Below, piece by piece: positions 14,907 to 25,190 of a stretch of 64,000 bases of DNA. Each line of letters begins with the position of its first letter. The first letter of the stretch is position 1. Source of the stretch: an uncultured Victivallaceae bacterium (GTDB lineage: Bacteria; Verrucomicrobiota; Lentisphaeria; Victivallales; Victivallaceae); the NCBI GenBank assembly GCA_944392655.1, contig CALXXL010000006.1, positions 62,001 to 126,000 of the forward strand, written 5' to 3'. The notes under the pieces were generated by a model. That model ran no database searches. It had not been told where the DNA came from and was given only the letters and a program-made list of their open reading frames with translations. The translations under genes were made by a program, and so were the position numbers.

Positions 14907-16019
14907 TCAGTTCTGTTCTCTTCTGGGGTGTCCTATCCCCGACGCTATAATGCTTATTCCGGCAAAAATAAACATAACCGGGAACCCTGCCCATGTCAGG
15001 AATCGTTGAGTTATCAAATTCCGCTCAAGTATCGCCTCATTTGGATTATCCGGATTAACCCAGCAATAAGTTGATTTGCCATACGGATATTTTTGAACCG
15101 CCTGTCGCATTTCATTCACGCCGGCATTTGAATATCCGCCGGAGTCGGCGACATCATAACGGCTTCCCCGGTACATTCTGTTCTCATACCAGTATTCATA
15201 TATAATGTTAGCTCGATAAACCGTACTACCACCATTACCGGAACTGCGTGACATTTTCGAGTCAAACTGGCTGGATATAATGGTTGCCGGCGTTATCACC
15301 CAACTCTGACTGGCAAGATATCGTTTTACCGGTAAAATTGTTACCCACCACAGTATTGCCGCGCCGACACAAACAAATATCAAACCGAACGCAAGCGCCA
15401 CCAATTTTCCTTTACGCGCCCCACCGTAGTTTTCCCAAGCCTCCTGCGGGCACCCCCAGATCGGCACGCCGAGTCCATCCGCCAGTTTCCCGGCATTATA
15501 TCCCAGGTCGTCAATATCGTAATATGTAGTCAAATTAATTCTGGTTCCGTCATATTCGACGATATTAAGTTCATAAGTATAATTAACAATTTTGTCTTTA
15601 CTGCGATTACGTTTTTTAATAACCTGCAACGTGGCGATATCATCCAGTCCACACTTGTCGCATCCGAAATTTATCACACCGCTGGCCGTCCTCCGCAGAC
15701 GCCAGTGAACATAGCATCCCTTTTTAAAATCGAATGTCTGCGCAGAACAATCCTTCAGCATCATAGATATACTGCCTACAAGAAGTGTTCCGCCCATAAT
15801 TCCGACAAGTATTTCCGCCCCCATCAGCCATGAAGTTATCAGCATTACCGCGTAGATCGCAGCCGCAATTATCATCATTTAAAAAATTATACTCTTCCGG
15901 AATATCCAACGCTCCGGATTGGAGGTATCCAGCTGACACATTGAAGTTTTTAGTTCGTAAGACGGCATCGGCTCCTGCGAAACCTGATTCTGCAAAGCGG
16001 TCAAATCATCATAATCCAT
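14907..16019 (-). pseudogene. DUF3592 paralogue interrupted by an in-frame TAA
   Basis: Read through, this is a 370-codon frame from the ATG at 16019 (AAGGAA 7 nt upstream), matching the 367-residue neighbour in length and order. Its N terminus (DDLTALQNQVSQEPMP, then NPERWIFRKSIIF) aligns with the neighbour's ERISNEPLEP and RPDRWIFREG. At codon 47 (15879-15881) a TAA stops translation. It is followed at once, in the same frame, by ATG ATG at 15878, so a 323-residue product lacking the N terminus could still be made. The rest is intact: DUF3592 motif CWVNPDNPNEAIL, hydrophobic segments and YELNIVEYDGTRINL. It may be a nonsense pseudogene, a reinitiated two-part gene or a sequencing error. Confidence 0.7.
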
Positions 16020-18038: not shown

Positions 18039-19178
18039 TTATTTTAAGATATCCCCGATATGTTCAAGGTCAAAATCGAAATCCGGGAACCGCTCCAGAA
18101 AATCAGTCAGACACATAGTGGAAGCGCAGCTTGGTCTTGAACCGTCATTATACTGCTGAACCACGGCAGGACATGAACCAACGCACCAGCGGTTGAAGCG
18201 GCACTCGCGGCACTTGTCATAATCAGTAATCGGCTTATGCCTCAAAGCTCTGAGCTCATTCAAAAACTGTGCAGATTGCCACACATCTTTGAGTTTATCT
18301 CTGTTGATATAACCGAGAACTTTATCCGGGAACGACGTACATGGCACGATACCGCCATCTGGTCTCACGCCCAGTCTGGTATAAACGCCGCCGCATGTGG
18401 CATGGCATCCGCCTCCCCGGATATTACGGTTCTCCTTTTCCGCCCATAGCATTTTACGCCATGTGTTCCAAACGCCCATAGGCACAGACACTGCTCCGAT
18501 TCTCTTGCCGGGGTACTTGCTCATCACGCGGCGATGCTCCATTATGGACTGTGCCACATCGTCGATGGTCAATTCAATCTGAAACGGGTTTTTGCTGTTG
18601 GATTCATTGACAACGGCGCCTCCGGTAGCGAAGAAATCCAATCCGAGGTCATTAAAAATAAAATCCGCCGTCTCCTCCAGATGACCGATATTATGATGGC
18701 TGATAGTGACTCTCGGATATACCGGGACATGGTATTTAATCAGATTTCTGATTCCGCGCACTGCGGCCTGAAAAGTCCCCTTCCCCCGTCCGGCATCATT
18801 AATTTCGCCTATTCCGTCGAGAGACACCTGCACCTTTCCGCGTCCGATATCCGCCAATTCTCTGGCGTGCGCTTCAGTAATCATCGTTCCGTTGGAAAGG
18901 ATAGTATAACGGATATTAGATTCGGCCACCTTCCGGCAAATAGTCATAAAATCCGGTCTGGAGAATGGTTCTCCGCCGGACAAAGAGACCTCTAAAACGG
19001 AAAGTGACTGCAATTCCTCGATGAATTGCAGCCACTCTTCAGTTGGGAGGTCTTTACAATACTCTGTTACGCTATCAAAATGAAAGCAATAGACACAGCG
19101 TAAATTGCACTTACTTGTCAGTTCAAGTATTAAACTTACCGGAGCCTGTAACAGAGGAGTACTGTTTACGCTCCCCAT
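18039..19178 (-). CDS. Radical SAM/SPASM peptide maturase
   Basis: 379 residues. The radical SAM cluster is CNLRCVYC (Cys24, 28, 31), which binds a 4Fe-4S that cleaves S-adenosylmethionine. SLSGGEP (about 66-72) is the SAM-binding glycine motif. The C-terminal third is Cys-rich (GGGCHATCGG, VPCTSFPD, then CRECRFNRWCVGSCPAV and two further Cys), a SPASM domain holding auxiliary Fe-S clusters. SPASM enzymes of this size typically modify ribosomal peptides, forming C-S or C-C links or epimerising residues. Just upstream, 9 nt away, a 46-residue peptide gene is in place as the obvious substrate. AAGGA precedes the ATG. No separate RRE/PqqD gene, protease or exporter is adjacent. The alternative, an anaerobic sulfatase maturase, is less likely: no sulfatase is in the window. 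Confidence 0.88.
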   Translation of the reverse strand: MGSVNSTPLLQAPVSLILELTSKCNLRCVYCFHFDSVTEYCKDLPTEEWLQFIEELQSLSVLEVSLSGGEPFSRPDFMTICRKVAESNIRYTILSNGTMITEAHARELADIGRGKVQVSLDGIGEINDAGRGKGTFQAAVRGIRNLIKYHVPVYPRVTISHHNIGHLEETADFIFNDLGLDFFATGGAVVNESNSKNPFQIELTIDDVAQSIMEHRRVMSKYPGKRIGAVSVPMGVWNTWRKMLWAEKENRNIRGGGCHATCGGVYTRLGVRPDGGIVPCTSFPDKVLGYINRDKLKDVWQSAQFLNELRALRHKPITDYDKCRECRFNRWCVGSCPAVVQQYNDGSRPSCASTMCLTDFLERFPDFDFDLEHIGDILK

Positions 19179-19187
19179 ATAAAATCC

Positions 19188-19328
19188 TTACGGAAGGACT
19201 TCAACGCTACCGTGATCGCAGGTGCCGGGAATAATTTCAGATGTTGCGCCTTCCAACAAAAATTCCGCGCCCCAGCCGGAGAATTTTTCCAAACTCGGTT
19301 TCTGATACTTCATAATTTTTTCTTCCAT
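19188..19328 (-). CDS. Putative RiPP precursor peptide, 46 residues
   Basis: A short reading frame starting with ATG at 19328, GGAG 8 nt upstream, stop at 19188-19190. The N terminus is MEEKIMKYQKPSLEKFS, whose Lys-Tyr-x-Lys-Pro-x-(L/V)-E pattern is common in leaders of peptides modified by radical SAM/SPASM enzymes. The central part is SGWGAEFLLEGATSEIIPG. The presumed core end is TCDHGSVEVLP, with a single Cys at residue 37, a His at 39 and no further Cys. There is no signal peptide. Position and spacing (9 nt before the radical SAM start, same strong promoter) support it as substrate. The modification site is unknown; candidates are Trp19, the Phe residues, Cys37, and the Asp-His or Thr near the C terminus. 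Confidence 0.75.
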   Translation of the reverse strand: MEEKIMKYQKPSLEKFSGWGAEFLLEGATSEIIPGTCDHGSVEVLP

Positions 19329-19390
19329 TTTTTGTTCTCCAAGTTAAAATGTCTTAGGAAAATTAAGGTTCATATCTCATACTACGGCTT

Positions 19391-19419
19391 AAAATACATC
19401 ACTAATTTTGAATAGTCAA
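19391..19419 (-). promoter_or_regulatory. Promoter of the peptide/radical SAM cassette
   Basis: On the minus strand, TTGACT (19414-19419) preceded by GC, a 17-bp spacer and TATTTT (19391-19396), about 60 bp before the precursor ATG. The surrounding 19329-19568 is A+T-rich and otherwise empty. Confidence 0.65.
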
Positions 19420-19568: not shown

Positions 19569-22376
19569 TTATTTAGCGCTTATTCCGAGTAAATACAGTG
19601 AATCCATGGCTTCGGTTGAGGCAAATGAAATGCTTTTCACGATTTTATCCGGCTGTGGATTTTTCCAGGTAAAAAACCAACTGTGATAAAGTTTGCCGTT
19701 TCCTTCCCATTCCAGAGAATTTCCGGTAGAGAGATGATAATTGAATTCATCGTCAATAGCGGAAAGCTGCCATGTATATTTAAGTGGCTCCTGAATGGTT
19801 GTGCCGTCCTCATACTCAATGGTCATATTTGCGATAGTGGCGAACTTGGCTGGGGCCACGTCTACAACAGCAGCCAGCACATAAAGTTCATTACACTTGA
19901 GGTTCAGCGGCATTTTGACGGTTTCCGGGAACATGGGGTTAAGACGTGATTTAACGGCGGCTACGAGGGGGGCGCCATCTTTTTCAGCGATTTTAAACTT
20001 AACCAATCCGGTATTTACCGTACCGGTAGGAATGGAATCCATGCCGTATGTATCACCGGAGAGGAATGGATTATTTTCTTCGGAGATTTTCAAATTTGCC
20101 ACTGGAGTCATATCGATCAACTTTACTTCTCCGGCGGTTGGATTATCCTGCCAGTTGCAAACCATATCGCACAGGACTCTTGCCGGATCGTATTTATTGA
20201 CGGCGTCATTAGCGTTCCATGTCCATACGCCGGTACGGACATAAGGGGTAAGCTGCCAGAAGCCGTTATGAGTAACAATCTTATTGCCGTTGTAGCCGCA
20301 CCAGATAGTCTGGAGGAGGCCGAATCCGCCCTGTTTCAGGCAGAACTTGGTCAGGTTTTCGATATTATTATCTTCATGCCATGATGCGCCGATCAGCGGG
20401 AATCCCTCATTACGCAATGCGGTGATATCCGGGAAATCGACCGGTCTGCCGTCATACCGCCATGCCGCCATAGTGATATCTTTAGGAAGTTTTTTGCGTA
20501 CTTCGGCGAGGTTATGCGGAGCGCCGCCTGCGCCGTTTTCAGTACTTTCTTCCGGGGTGACGAGCAAGTCGTGCCACATCATAATTTTCATATTATGTTT
20601 ATTGGCGTAGTTATAATACCACATAATATCGTCGTAGAGAATTTTCTGAATTCCCAATTTTTTATTTTCGGGTCTGGCGGGGAATTCTGCTTTGGGGTGG
20701 AATACCTCGTCGTGTCCGATATGGAGATATTTGGGATATCCGCTGGCTTCGATGACCTCATCCAGAGCTTTTTCGATATATGGATAGAGTCTCGGGTTGG
20801 AGACGTTGTATGCGTATGGGTAATTCACATCTTCGGCGAGGTCGAGATTTTTAAAGTTGCCGTTTTCGTCTTTGGGGAACATCCATCCGCAGTGACCGAA
20901 GGTCTGGAAGAGCGGCACCACATCGATATAGTTATCCTGACACCATTTTACGAGGTTGATATAATCTTCCTTGCTCATGCCCCATGGCTGATGAACGTCG
21001 CTGGTGGCGTCCCATTTTACATATTCCACTTCCGGCACAATGGTATTGTACTTAAGGGGAGCGAGGACATCATCGACCATTCTGGTATGGAATATATGGG
21101 AATAATCGTCCACGAGGAACATAGCGGCGCGGAAGGACATATCCGGCCAGTCTTCGATCTTAATTTCGGCGATTTTACCGTCCCGGAAGATACCGCGCAA
21201 AGTCTGCATGGCATAGAATGCGCCGCGTGGGGTTTTGCTGATTACGGATATTGAATCCGGTTTAACGTCGAGATAATATCCCTCTTCGTTCTCCACCGGA
21301 GCCTGTTCGGTGATTTCTATTTTCAACGCGGCGTTGTCGGTGCTGGCCAATTCGGCATCGACGCCCATTTTAGCCCATACGCGAGCCACGGCTCTGGCAA
21401 GACGGTCGATTTCCGTATCGTTGCCATCCAGTCCGGCAATGGAGAAGCTGATTTTTTCTGCGGGGACAAAGAATCCGCCCTCGCCCGGCATGGGCTGAAC
21501 CATTTTCTTCGGCACCGGCAGCAACGGCATATCCGGGGCATAAGTGGTAACTCCGGCGGGATCGACTTCAACAGCAAGCGGCGTATCGGTTCCGTCGGTT
21601 TCGGGTACGGCGATTTTGAGATCGTCATTGATATCGAACTGAATTTCGATTACGCTGCGGAATGGTTTGCCGTAATCGAGAGTGGTTTGATATCCGAACC
21701 AGAATCCTTTTTTATCGGCAAAAGTCAAGGTACGGCGGTCGCCGATATTGAATGCCGGCCCCTCTTTAAGTTCGACAGAGAGTTCGCCGAGGGCGGTTTT
21801 AAATTCGATTTCCCTGACTTTTTCATACATAAGCCACGGTGAATTCGGTGCCGGTTCTTTTTCGAAAATCTTACCTTTTATTTCGGTACCGTCTTCGAGT
21901 TTTCCCTCATATTCAGCGCCGACCAGCAAACTGTACGGTACAGCGAATGCGCTGTACTCGAATACGCTGGGGATATCGGCGGTAGCTTCGCAGTCGAGGG
22001 TAACGAGGGCGGTATCTCCGGTAACGACGCATGAATACTCGTTGAGTTTAAATTCATGAGTTCCGTTGCCCTGAAGCATGGAGACCTTGTATCCGCCTTC
22101 GACCTCTTCTCTTGGTCCCGGGCGTCCGTCCTCCATGCTGTAGAAGCGCCGGGTACGCCATGGTGGTTCAATTGCCATAATATTACTGGTATACGACAAT
22201 CCTGCGATTGGGCTGGCGAGAGTCAATCCGGGATTTCCGGTCATTTTTGCGACCAGTGTATCTTCCAGTGCGTTACTCCTGCTGTTGTCTGCGGCATCCC
22301 CCGCGTATCCAGAAATGGAGGAGGCGGCGGCGATGACGCACATCAGAGATTTTGCGAGCAGCGACTTCATTCCCAT
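19569..22376 (-). CDS. Secreted GH20-like beta-hexosaminidase-family protein (copy A)
   Basis: 935 residues with an AAAGGA RBS 6 nt before the ATG and a signal peptide (KSLLAKSLMCVIAAASSISG). About 250 residues of an unassigned beta-domain precede the GH20b-type alpha/beta domain, which begins near PVPKKMV. The GH20 TIM-barrel follows. The catalytic Asp-Glu pair falls at D556-E557 in HIGHDEVF, and substrate-wall motifs include FQTFGHCGW and MMWHDLLV. Canonical GH20 enzymes have H-x-G-G-D-E; here the second Gly is His. After the barrel comes a C-terminal beta-sandwich ending LYLLGISAK. GH20 removes terminal HexNAc by substrate-assisted catalysis. It lies 39 nt downstream of a paralogue, so the pair is probably an operon. 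Confidence 0.85.
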   Translation of the reverse strand: MGMKSLLAKSLMCVIAAASSISGYAGDAADNSRSNALEDTLVAKMTGNPGLTLASPIAGLSYTSNIMAIEPPWRTRRFYSMEDGRPGPREEVEGGYKVSMLQGNGTHEFKLNEYSCVVTGDTALVTLDCEATADIPSVFEYSAFAVPYSLLVGAEYEGKLEDGTEIKGKIFEKEPAPNSPWLMYEKVREIEFKTALGELSVELKEGPAFNIGDRRTLTFADKKGFWFGYQTTLDYGKPFRSVIEIQFDINDDLKIAVPETDGTDTPLAVEVDPAGVTTYAPDMPLLPVPKKMVQPMPGEGGFFVPAEKISFSIAGLDGNDTEIDRLARAVARVWAKMGVDAELASTDNAALKIEITEQAPVENEEGYYLDVKPDSISVISKTPRGAFYAMQTLRGIFRDGKIAEIKIEDWPDMSFRAAMFLVDDYSHIFHTRMVDDVLAPLKYNTIVPEVEYVKWDATSDVHQPWGMSKEDYINLVKWCQDNYIDVVPLFQTFGHCGWMFPKDENGNFKNLDLAEDVNYPYAYNVSNPRLYPYIEKALDEVIEASGYPKYLHIGHDEVFHPKAEFPARPENKKLGIQKILYDDIMWYYNYANKHNMKIMMWHDLLVTPEESTENGAGGAPHNLAEVRKKLPKDITMAAWRYDGRPVDFPDITALRNEGFPLIGASWHEDNNIENLTKFCLKQGGFGLLQTIWCGYNGNKIVTHNGFWQLTPYVRTGVWTWNANDAVNKYDPARVLCDMVCNWQDNPTAGEVKLIDMTPVANLKISEENNPFLSGDTYGMDSIPTGTVNTGLVKFKIAEKDGAPLVAAVKSRLNPMFPETVKMPLNLKCNELYVLAAVVDVAPAKFATIANMTIEYEDGTTIQEPLKYTWQLSAIDDEFNYHLSTGNSLEWEGNGKLYHSWFFTWKNPQPDKIVKSISFASTEAMDSLYLLGISAK

Positions 22377-22415
22377 TACAAATCCTTTCTTAAATTAATT
22401 GTTATATATTAAAGA

Positions 22416-25190
22416 TTAAAATCCGCTTATACCGAAGAGATAATACGGCTGTCCCGAGCTTTTAAGAACGATCCGGGAGATAATTTTACCCGGCTGCGGG
22501 TTGTTCCAAACAGAGTACCACACCTTTGAAATTTCTCCGTCGAATGGCAGTTCTATGGCATTGCCGGTGCTGAGGTAATAGTTGTAATCTGCGCCCGGCA
22601 CTCCGACTTCCATTCCATATTTTACAGGATATTCCACCGTTGAACCGTCTTTATAATATATAGTATAGGAAGCGATATTGGAATAGAGAGGCGGTATACT
22701 GCCAATTGATGAATGGAGGAAGAACAATTTTTCCGCCTTCAGGTTCAGATTTTCCAGTGCAATTTCCTCCGGGAAACCGGGATTGATGGAAGATTTGACG
22801 GCGGCTGCGGCGGTATATCCATTTTTTCCGGCGACATCGAACAGCACATTACCGCACCGTTTTTCTCCACATCCAAGCGCGTCAAGTCCGTATGTAATAC
22901 CGGAGAGGAACGGATTATTCGCGCCGGTTATGCTCAAATTGGCAATGCCGTTTATATCGAGAGTAAATCCGTCATGTTTTTCCTCCGGTTTAGCGTTCTC
23001 ATGGAGATCGCAGAAAACCTTTGCCGCGTTGAGATTCTCATTTGCCCTGCTGCTGACATTCCATGACCAGCATCCGGACCGCACATAAGGTGCCATCTGG
23101 TGGAACCAGTAGTAGTAATTATCTTTATTCGGGGTATAAATCCATGTTGTTGAAAGCATCCCCATAGCATTCTGTTCTCTGGCAAACCGGGTAAAATTCT
23201 CCACGTTGTTGGTTGCGTACCATGATGCGCCGATCACGGGGAACCCATCCTGAGCCAGCGCCTTCATATCGTCAAAGGTTTCGAAGTCGCCGGAGTAGCG
23301 CCACACGGTAAAGATAATATCTTTGGGTAATTTTTTGCGCAGTTCGGCGGTAAAATGCGGAGCGCCGCCGGAGCCGTTTTCCGGGCTTTCCTCTTTAGTG
23401 ACAAAGATATCCTGCCACAGCATCAGCTGCATATTGTGTTTTCCGGCGTAATTATAACACCACATGATATGGTCGTACACCACATTTTGAACGCCTTTGC
23501 GTGCAGTCTCCTTGCGATACGGGAATTGCCCGAAAAGGAAGAGTTCGTCCAGGCCTACGTGGAAGAATCTGGTTTGTCCGAACACCTCCACCACCTCATC
23601 GAATAATCTTTCAAGCATCGGGTAGAGATTCGGGTGCGAGGTATTGAATGCGAACGGCAGCGAGTGGCATGAATTATTGAAATATAATGGATAGTTTGGA
23701 TCCTCCGCCATATCGAGATTCTTTCCTCCCTCAAACAGCCATGGCACATGGCTGAGGGTCTGAAATAGCGGAGTAACCTCAATAAAATTTTCGTCGGCGG
23801 TCTGAAGCAGCTGTTTAAGCTGTTCTTTGGACATGGCGTTGGGGATGTGCAATCCTTTAGTGGTATCCCATGCCACATATTCGCACTCCAGGAGGATATG
23901 ATTCATTTTCATGGGGGCGAGAACGTTTTCGATCATGAACGAATAGTGTTCCAGAGCGTCGGCATCCATATGAGCGGCATGAATACCGCGTATATCCATA
24001 TCCGGCCAGTCGCGAACTTCGCAGAATGGCAGAGATCCGCCATCTGAACAGCTGTCAGCGAGAGCCGCAACGGTCTGAAGCGCGTAGAATGCGCCGCGGG
24101 CGGAGTTGGCGGCGATGGTCAAACCATCTTCATTGATCTTCATGGCATATCCTTCGGGATGCTGTGGAGCGGCCAGTCCGTTTTCTGGACTTCCGCCGAC
24201 AGTTATCTGCATTTTAGCGCCGCCATTGCCGGTCAATCCCAGCCGTTCAGCTGCCCGTTCAAGTTTAGCTGCGTCCTGCTCCGACAAGGCGTTGCTGCCG
24301 GCAAACTCCGGTCCGGCAAAATTTCCGGTTAAAACTCCGTCAGCATAACGTATCACCTTAGGAGCCGGCAGCAGCGGCCGTCCGATCCTCCGGGAAGAGA
24401 AAAGCTTTTTTTTCTGAACGGCATTCACCTTACCGTCGCCATACTCCGGAGCGGCGATTTTCAGCTCAGGGTTAATGGTGTATGAAAAATTGACCACACT
24501 TTTAACTGGTACACCCTTAACCATATCGCCGTCGTTGCCGATCCAGTAACAGCGCATATTTTCGAAAGGCACGCCGCGGCGGTCGGCGACAGTAAAGGGT
24601 TTACCTTCAACGACGTCGAATTGAAAAGTCCCGTAGTTGTTTGATGCGGAAAACTTCACTGCATCTTTAACCAGGTATACAATTTCAGTTGAACTGCCGA
24701 AGCTGACCGGCACGGATCCGGATACGATCTTACCATCGGCGGTTTCCGCGGTGAACTCAGCTCCGGCGAGCAGGTTTTCCGGCAGGACAAAGATGGTATA
24801 TTCCATAAATGTGGGCAGCTCCTTCAACAGTTCCATATCCAGGGTCATCACGCCGGAGTTGCCGTTGAATTTCACAGAATACTCTTTAAAATTGATTTCG
24901 TCGAACTTGCCGTCCTGGATAATTCTTCCGCCGTTGGAGTTGATTTCGCACCGTATTGGATCGATCATGGTATAGAACCGGTTTGCGCGCCATGGCGGTT
25001 CGCATGCGATAACCTTGGAAAACACGGAAATATCGAAGAGTTGGTTACTGATTTTAAATCCGTTGCTGTCGGCGGCAACGCTCAACTGAGCCCTGCTGCT
25101 GTTTTGAGACACACAACCTGTGGTTATCACCAAAAGAGAGACAACGGCAAATATCCACTGCAGTTTATCTTTAAAAAAACTCATAATCAT
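22416..25190 (-). CDS. GH20-like lipoprotein (copy B)
   Basis: 924 residues. The N terminus ends in a lipobox (FAVVSLLVITTGC), so it is probably a lipoprotein. Layout matches copy A: a long beta-domain starting with VIACEPPWRANRFYTM, a GH20b-like domain (near PLLPAPKVIRY), a TIM barrel and a C-terminal sandwich ending PYYLFGISGF. The catalytic pair is D548-E549 in HVGLDELF, where H-x-G-L-D-E replaces H-x-G-G-D-E. The barrel has FQTLSHVPW, LMLWQDIFV and the Trp-rich HQMAPYVRSGCWSW. The start could be the ATG at 25184, six nt later. Copy A is secreted and copy B anchored, suggesting complementary sites of action on a HexNAc-containing glycan. Confidence 0.83.
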   Translation of the reverse strand: MIMSFFKDKLQWIFAVVSLLVITTGCVSQNSSRAQLSVAADSNGFKISNQLFDISVFSKVIACEPPWRANRFYTMIDPIRCEINSNGGRIIQDGKFDEINFKEYSVKFNGNSGVMTLDMELLKELPTFMEYTIFVLPENLLAGAEFTAETADGKIVSGSVPVSFGSSTEIVYLVKDAVKFSASNNYGTFQFDVVEGKPFTVADRRGVPFENMRCYWIGNDGDMVKGVPVKSVVNFSYTINPELKIAAPEYGDGKVNAVQKKKLFSSRRIGRPLLPAPKVIRYADGVLTGNFAGPEFAGSNALSEQDAAKLERAAERLGLTGNGGAKMQITVGGSPENGLAAPQHPEGYAMKINEDGLTIAANSARGAFYALQTVAALADSCSDGGSLPFCEVRDWPDMDIRGIHAAHMDADALEHYSFMIENVLAPMKMNHILLECEYVAWDTTKGLHIPNAMSKEQLKQLLQTADENFIEVTPLFQTLSHVPWLFEGGKNLDMAEDPNYPLYFNNSCHSLPFAFNTSHPNLYPMLERLFDEVVEVFGQTRFFHVGLDELFLFGQFPYRKETARKGVQNVVYDHIMWCYNYAGKHNMQLMLWQDIFVTKEESPENGSGGAPHFTAELRKKLPKDIIFTVWRYSGDFETFDDMKALAQDGFPVIGASWYATNNVENFTRFAREQNAMGMLSTTWIYTPNKDNYYYWFHQMAPYVRSGCWSWNVSSRANENLNAAKVFCDLHENAKPEEKHDGFTLDINGIANLSITGANNPFLSGITYGLDALGCGEKRCGNVLFDVAGKNGYTAAAAVKSSINPGFPEEIALENLNLKAEKLFFLHSSIGSIPPLYSNIASYTIYYKDGSTVEYPVKYGMEVGVPGADYNYYLSTGNAIELPFDGEISKVWYSVWNNPQPGKIISRIVLKSSGQPYYLFGISGF

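What the first reader, a model, noticed from the sequence alone, without database searches (positions are those of the whole stretch)
18039..19419. Two-gene RiPP-like cassette: 46-residue peptide plus radical SAM/SPASM maturase
A short peptide gene with its own GGAG RBS lies 9 nt upstream of a radical SAM/SPASM enzyme, under a promoter with TTGACT-17-TATTTT. The peptide has a Lys-Tyr-x-Lys-Pro leader-like start and a one-Cys C-terminal end (TCDHGSVEVLP), so it does not match multi-Cys sactipeptide or six-Cys (SCIFF) precursors. No protease, exporter or RRE gene is linked. This makes it a candidate for an undescribed class, with a single modification or an Asp/His/Trp cross-link. The leader resemblance and the class are inference.
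Basis: partly seen in the sequence, partly recalled or inferred. Interest (0 to 1): 0.82.

Follow-up and report, generated by a model that had tools for sequence, protein, structure and literature searches.

The report
Mini ScmE-type peptide-modifying gene pair
A tiny gene for a 46-residue peptide sits beside an enzyme that probably ties a ring in it through its one cysteine; the pair belongs to a family scattered through one bacterial family, and it is a trimmed-down, untested version of a peptide-making system so far known mainly as a database entry.

Summary
A 46-codon gene (19188-19328, -) lies 9 nt before a radical SAM/SPASM gene (18039-19178, -). The peptide is real: the same genome has two more peptide+enzyme pairs and two orphan peptides, and about 30 homologues occur in the same bacterial family, in none of the other genomes sampled across the phylum. 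A duplicated homologous pair differs by 6 silent changes and 1 amino-acid change. The interpretation needs changing. The enzyme is closest to ScmE of the SynChlorMet cassette (302 bits, cut-off 400), outside the canonical ScmE clade. The leader YxxPxL is the published RRE-binding motif, shared with ScmA-type precursors. The missing parts are unlinked, not absent: RRE genes, an RRE+ABC exporter pair, a ScmC-like kinase and an SpI-like peptidase lie elsewhere in the genome. Across 15 genomes, core-Cys peptides occur only where a ScmE-like enzyme exists (11/11 vs 0/4), with contrasts within two genera. An Asp/Glu 5-6 residues after the Cys is enriched. Most likely product: one Cys-to-Asp/Glu-type thioether ring (-2 Da), ranthipeptide-like; chemistry not shown. 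Many relatives lie directly after giant AIDA-like surface-protein genes; the window copy does not. The proposed promoter is at chance level.

The parts
19188..19328 (-). Precursor peptide gene, 46 aa: MEEKIMKYQKPSLEKFSGWGAEFLLEGATSEIIPGTCDHGSVEVLP
   Evidence: ORF; homologues; purifying selection in a duplicated homologous pair
19257..19313 (-). Leader segment from about Met6 to Leu24 (MKYQKPSLEKFSGWGAEFL; YxxPxLxxFxGW); YxxPxL matches the published RRE-recognition motif
   Evidence: alignments; PMC13381572
19191..19253 (-). Putative core from Glu26 (EGATSEIIPGTCDHGSVEVLP): EGAT junction, single Cys37, Glu43 six residues later
   Evidence: alignment; Cys/acid and Cys/enzyme statistics; the core boundary is inference
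18039..19178 (-). ScmE-like radical SAM/SPASM maturase, 379 aa; CNLRCVYC, 7-Cys SPASM pattern C262-x12-G-x4-C280 / C323-x2-C326-x5-C332-x3-C336 / C356; no RRE domain
   Evidence: NCBIfam TIGR04250 5.8e-90, 302 bits vs cut-off 400; Pfam Radical_SAM and SPASM; tree
19391..19419 (-). Promoter-like site TTGACT-17-TATTTT (not above chance)

Best explanation
The two genes encode a RiPP precursor and its radical SAM/SPASM maturase, a reduced sister of the ScmA/ScmE pair of the SynChlorMet (Scm) system. Proposed mechanism: the YxxPxL leader is bound by a stand-alone PqqD-type RRE encoded elsewhere in the genome (contig C10 or C3), which presents the tail to the ScmE-like enzyme. The enzyme abstracts a hydrogen from an acceptor side chain and joins it to the sulfur of Cys37, most likely at Glu43 (or a neighbouring residue), giving one thioether ring and a loss of 2 Da. 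The unlinked SpI-like peptidase and MsbA-like ABC exporter would then remove the leader and export the product. Shown: gene pair, homologous family, shared leader, co-occurrence of core Cys with the enzyme, presence of the unlinked genes. Inferred: RRE binding, the bond, cleavage, export. The biological role is unknown.
For: Enzyme is ScmE-like with two paralogues in the genome, each after a YxxPxL peptide. Canonical Scm cassettes in other phyla and in relatives have precursors with the same leader type and, in those checked, ScmC/ScmD/ScmE/ScmF proteins above their cut-offs. RRE genes lie on C3, C10 and C14, one with a ScmC-like kinase and one with an ABC exporter; an SpI-like peptidase lies on C15, 31% identical over 108 aa to the one beside the Scm cassette in L050. 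Genomes with a ScmE-like enzyme have core-Cys peptides 11/11, genomes without 0/4; per peptide 30/33 vs 0/5, Fisher 1.1e-4. Asp/Glu at Cys+5/+6 in 23/28 tails vs 13.0 shuffled, p 5e-5. PapB joins Cys to Asp in CXnD, n=0-6, with -2 Da, and does not accept the reversed order (PMC9413430). YxxP is essential for RRE binding in LPP (PMC13381572).
Against: No chemistry was measured. Tails are short and acidic and the peptides are related: without the three-Cys genus-15 group the acid enrichment is 12/17 vs 8.2, p 0.04. The acid position is not fixed (+5 to +7) and one enzyme-linked peptide (G033 C15) lacks it after its last Cys. The TIGR04250 cut-off, and for the unlinked parts the TIGR04248/04249 cut-offs, are not reached in this genome. 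Whether the unlinked RRE, exporter or peptidase serves this peptide is untested; those genes may serve other peptides.
Confidence: 0.62

Rival explanations
1. Sactipeptide-type product: the enzyme joins Cys37 to the alpha-carbon of another residue (for example Val42, Ser41 or an upstream residue) instead of an acidic side chain.
For: PDB sequence search ranks the sactipeptide maturase SkfB first; the Cys/enzyme co-occurrence fits any thioether.
Against: Acidic residue after the Cys is enriched; no conserved hydrophobic acceptor at fixed spacing in the alignment.
Confidence: 0.15
2. Carbon-carbon cross-link in the Gly-Trp region (PqqE, streptide or WgkB type), with the Cys not involved.
For: Gly-Trp is kept in the window genus; the NCBIfam list for the enzyme includes WgkB and PqqE models.
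Against: The Trp lies in the leader and is missing in several peptides of enzyme-bearing genomes (G033 C4, G095, genus-15 peptides), and Trp also occurs in Cys-free peptides of enzyme-less genomes (G024, G028); the Cys tracks the enzyme.
Confidence: 0.1
3. The product is a processed cofactor or small metabolite cut from the peptide, as in PQQ or mycofactocin, not a secreted peptide.
For: Small precursor plus one SPASM enzyme with an RRE in trans resembles PqqA/PqqE/PqqD and mycofactocin.
Against: Tails vary between paralogues in one genome and relatives sit beside surface-protein genes, unlike a fixed cofactor precursor.
Confidence: 0.08
4. Non-functional remnant: the enzyme pair is a decaying copy.
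For: One duplicated locus in the genome has a truncated enzyme (C1:57783) and one relative has a frameshifted enzyme (G001 C13).
Against: The window pair is intact with all cluster cysteines; the orthologue in G001 (56% identity) also keeps its peptide.
Confidence: 0.05

Closest known systems
SynChlorMet (Scm) cassette: ScmA precursor (TIGR04252), ScmC (TIGR04249), ScmD (TIGR04248), ScmE (TIGR04250), ScmF (TIGR04251)
   Same: ScmE-like enzyme; YxxPx[LIV]-type leader followed by a Gly-containing junction and a Cys-containing core; ScmC-like and ScmD-like genes in the same genome
   Different: Below the ScmE cut-off and outside the ScmE clade; one Cys instead of repeated CxxG units; no ScmF; ScmC/ScmD unlinked; peptide not matched by TIGR04252
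LPP (linear polyphosphorylated peptides), PMC13381572
   Same: YxxP leader; stand-alone RRE, HprK-like kinase, SpI-type peptidase and MsbA-like exporter exist in the genome
   Different: A radical SAM enzyme sits beside the precursor; the parts are scattered; LPP is described as restricted to Bacillota
Ranthipeptides (PapA/PapB, freyrasin), PMC9413430
   Same: SPASM enzyme; Cys followed by Asp/Glu at short distance
   Different: Enzyme scores only 90 bits to the PapB model (cut-off 340); one Cys; longer spacing; different leader; chemistry not tested
PQQ (PqqA/PqqE/PqqD)
   Same: Short precursor, SPASM enzyme, PqqD-type RRE
   Different: No Glu/Tyr PqqA motif; PqqE model 98.5 bits vs cut-off 381

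Membership tests
SynChlorMet (Scm) cassette | Radical SAM protein at or above TIGR04250 (ScmE) cut-off | tested here: not met
   302 bits vs 400; best of all NCBIfam models; beside but outside the ScmE clade, support 95/98
SynChlorMet (Scm) cassette | Precursor matching TIGR04252 (ScmA) | tested here: not met
   no NCBIfam hit at E<=1
SynChlorMet (Scm) cassette | ScmD, ScmC and ScmF encoded in the same cluster | tested here: not met
   neighbours are tRNA-Pro, a dicarboxylate symporter and GH20 genes; ScmC/ScmD-like genes unlinked and under cut-off
SynChlorMet (Scm) cassette | YxxPx[LIV]-type leader as in the precursors of canonical cassettes | tested here: met
Ranthipeptide | SPASM maturase plus precursor with Cys before Asp/Glu | tested here: met
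   C37-x5-E43
Ranthipeptide | Thioether from Cys to a non-alpha carbon | not testable with these tools
   needs mass spectrometry or NMR
Ranthipeptide | Enzyme above NF047865 (PapB) cut-off | tested here: not met
   90 bits vs 340
LPP | YxxPxV leader with RRE, HprK-like kinase, SpI peptidase and exporter in one cluster | tested here: not met
   parts present but on different contigs

The most novel reading that the evidence does not exclude
A bacterial family runs a scattered RiPP system in which shared enzymes (RRE, kinase, exporter, peptidase, with ScmE-like enzymes in some genomes) mature many YxxPxL peptides in trans, most of them encoded directly after giant AIDA-like surface proteins, so that a modified peptide acts as a partner, cap or effector of a surface fibre; the window pair is a free-standing branch of it.
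Probability: 0.25. Interest if true: 0.78.

Novelty: new variant of a known kind. Interest (0 to 1): 0.6.

Why it matters
The Scm system has database models, but I found no paper on it in the library searched. This two-gene form with one Cys is close to the smallest possible substrate for finding out what ScmE-type enzymes do. The finding also shows that missing neighbours in a RiPP locus can mean trans-acting parts, and the Cys/enzyme co-occurrence gives a testable prediction of the modified residue. The link of related peptides to giant surface proteins is, to my knowledge, undescribed.

Tried and rejected
Promoter claim: not above shuffled expectation. Direct homology of the peptide to curated families: none in NCBIfam; only a sub-threshold Pfam hit. 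Pfam annotation of the giant surface proteins: none that counts. Papers on SynChlorMet, ScmE, Lentisphaerota ranthipeptides or Victivallis radical SAM precursors: none held. Surface-protein link as an explanation of the window pair: rejected for this copy, since no such gene is adjacent; two further surface-protein genes in the genome have no peptide after them. Cys-x5-acid as a strict motif: rejected, spacing varies. Structure prediction was not run: the fold would not tell the chemistry.

Full report
OBSERVATION. Reading the minus strand, ORF 19188-19328 encodes MEEKIMKYQKPSLEKFSGWGAEFLLEGATSEIIPGTCDHGSVEVLP and, 9 nt later, ORF 18039-19178 encodes a 379-residue protein. The enzyme carries CNLRCVYC and a seven-cysteine SPASM pattern, with Pfam Radical_SAM at 1e-26 and SPASM at 8e-11. 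The neighbours are tRNA-Pro, a sodium:dicarboxylate symporter, two GH20-type hydrolases and a lipid A acyltransferase; nothing local looks like RiPP processing. The suggested promoter exists, but such matches are as frequent in shuffled sequence.

THE PEPTIDE IS REAL. The enzyme has two full-length close paralogues in the same genome. Each follows a short peptide with the same pattern, YxxPxLxxFxGW...EG...C. A peptide profile finds five members in this genome, two of them without an intact enzyme next door. The two copies on contig C1 are a duplication: their peptides differ at seven codons, six silently, as expected if the peptide is translated and selected. The sister species G001 has counterpart pairs; in one of them the tail SFxPPDPGCFLPGLExxCxExGxI is kept across species. 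In a wider search, 10 of 289 genomes drawn across the phylum have such peptides, all in the window's own family (family-level search).

FAMILY OF THE ENZYME. The best NCBIfam model is TIGR04250, ScmE of the SynChlorMet cassette, at 302 bits against a cut-off of 400. Loci from Anaerolineales, Nitrospirae, Chlorobiaceae and others hold canonical cassettes; the proteins scanned from two of them and from relatives pass the cut-offs for ScmC, ScmD, ScmE or ScmF. In a maximum-likelihood tree canonical ScmE proteins form a clade (95/98); the window enzyme pairs with its G001 orthologue (56% identity, support 100/99) outside it. The precursors of canonical cassettes share the YxxPx[LIV]-type leader and a Gly-containing junction, but their cores are repeats with many Cys. 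The window pair is therefore a sister, stripped-down form, not a member by the curated criteria.

MISSING PARTS ARE ELSEWHERE. The genome holds three PqqD-type RRE genes. On C10 one sits beside an ABC exporter; on C3 and C14 others sit behind a HprK/ScmC-like kinase and another YxxPx peptide. An SpI-like peptidase on C15 resembles the peptidase beside the canonical cassette in L050. In the Bacillota LPP family the set RRE, HprK-like kinase, SpI peptidase and MsbA-like exporter goes with YxxP-leader peptides, with Tyr and Pro essential for RRE binding (PMC13381572). In relatives the parts are linked in other ways: G033 has peptide-enzyme-ScmC-PqqD in a row, and G027 has a PqqD-enzyme-ScmC operon with its peptides on other contigs. 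Trans action is the economical reading, but it is not shown.

WHAT THE ENZYME ACTS ON. After seeing Cys-free peptides in two genomes without the enzyme, I predicted that a core Cys would track with a ScmE-like gene (notebook) and checked further genomes. Eleven genomes with the enzyme all have core-Cys peptides; four without (G024, G028, G034, G012) have none (Fisher 7e-4 by genome; 30/33 vs 0/5 by peptide, 1.1e-4). Two of the contrasts lie within one genus each (G033/G024 and G027/G034). The three Cys-free peptides in enzyme-bearing genomes (two in G019, one in G000) are not next to the enzyme. Asp or Glu follows the last Cys at +5 or +6 in 23 of 28 tails (13.0 expected by shuffling tails, p 5e-5), but only 12 of 17 (p 0.04) once the similar genus-15 peptides are left out. 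PapB, a ranthipeptide maturase, joins Cys to Asp in CXnD for n=0-6 with -2 Da and rejects the reverse order (PMC9413430). I therefore favour a single Cys37-Glu43-type thioether. That the enzyme depends on a core Cys is well supported; the partner residue and carbon are inference.

SURFACE-PROTEIN LINK. Many relatives, with or without the enzyme, lie directly downstream of genes for proteins of about 500-2000 residues rich in AIDA-like Gly-Gly repeats, with no Pfam match. The AIDA likeness is my own reading of the repeats, not a database hit. In the window genome four peptides do so, while three known surface-protein genes have none. The window pair, its G001 orthologue, the C3:181k pair and G019:964k do not. 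The link may point to a role but cannot be used for the window copy.

LIMITS. Genomes are draft assemblies; an enzyme may be missing from a genome called enzyme-less (86-99% complete). Counts are not corrected for shared ancestry. Peptides were found through their leader, so leader conservation is partly by selection; the Cys statistics are much less so.

Noticed in passing
L135:8293-8427, L141:6975-7127, L129-L131, L199, L202-L205: YxxPxL peptide genes directly downstream of giant AIDA-like, Gly-Gly-repeat surface-protein genes ending in a short hydrophobic tail (..LxLxKLA); several have a HprK/ScmC-like kinase and PqqD but no radical SAM gene.
   Followed up: partly
L186, L189, L191, L192-L195 (genomes G065, G027, G093): A three-Cys subgroup of peptides with tail SC[YF]xDC..DxICPxxxD; in G027 the radical SAM, PqqD and ScmC genes sit in one operon on another contig (L136).
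   Followed up: partly
L007:9565-10693 and 15784-15982 (G000 C1): Tandem duplication of surface protein + peptide + radical SAM; the second radical SAM is truncated after its first residues while its peptide is kept almost unchanged.
   Followed up: partly
L142:7659-8896 (G000 C3): Peptide MEYKSPQISELETQLYCDSEIGSSVDQPIDPGDQPWS directly before ScmC-like kinase and PqqD genes, after a pilin-like gene: a second kind of RiPP-like locus in the genome.
   Followed up: no
L197:376-1357 (G001 C13): ScmE-like radical SAM gene split by a frameshift beside an intact two-Cys peptide and a surface-protein gene.
   Followed up: no
L044:1271-1369 and L030:1165-1251: Small ORF MVGKGSARRPGDEKxYRENWEKIFGxK conserved upstream of the C3 pair in G000 and its G001 counterpart.
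   Followed up: no
window 19569-25190: Two adjacent GH20-family proteins of about 930 aa with modest catalytic-domain scores, next to the cassette.
   Followed up: no
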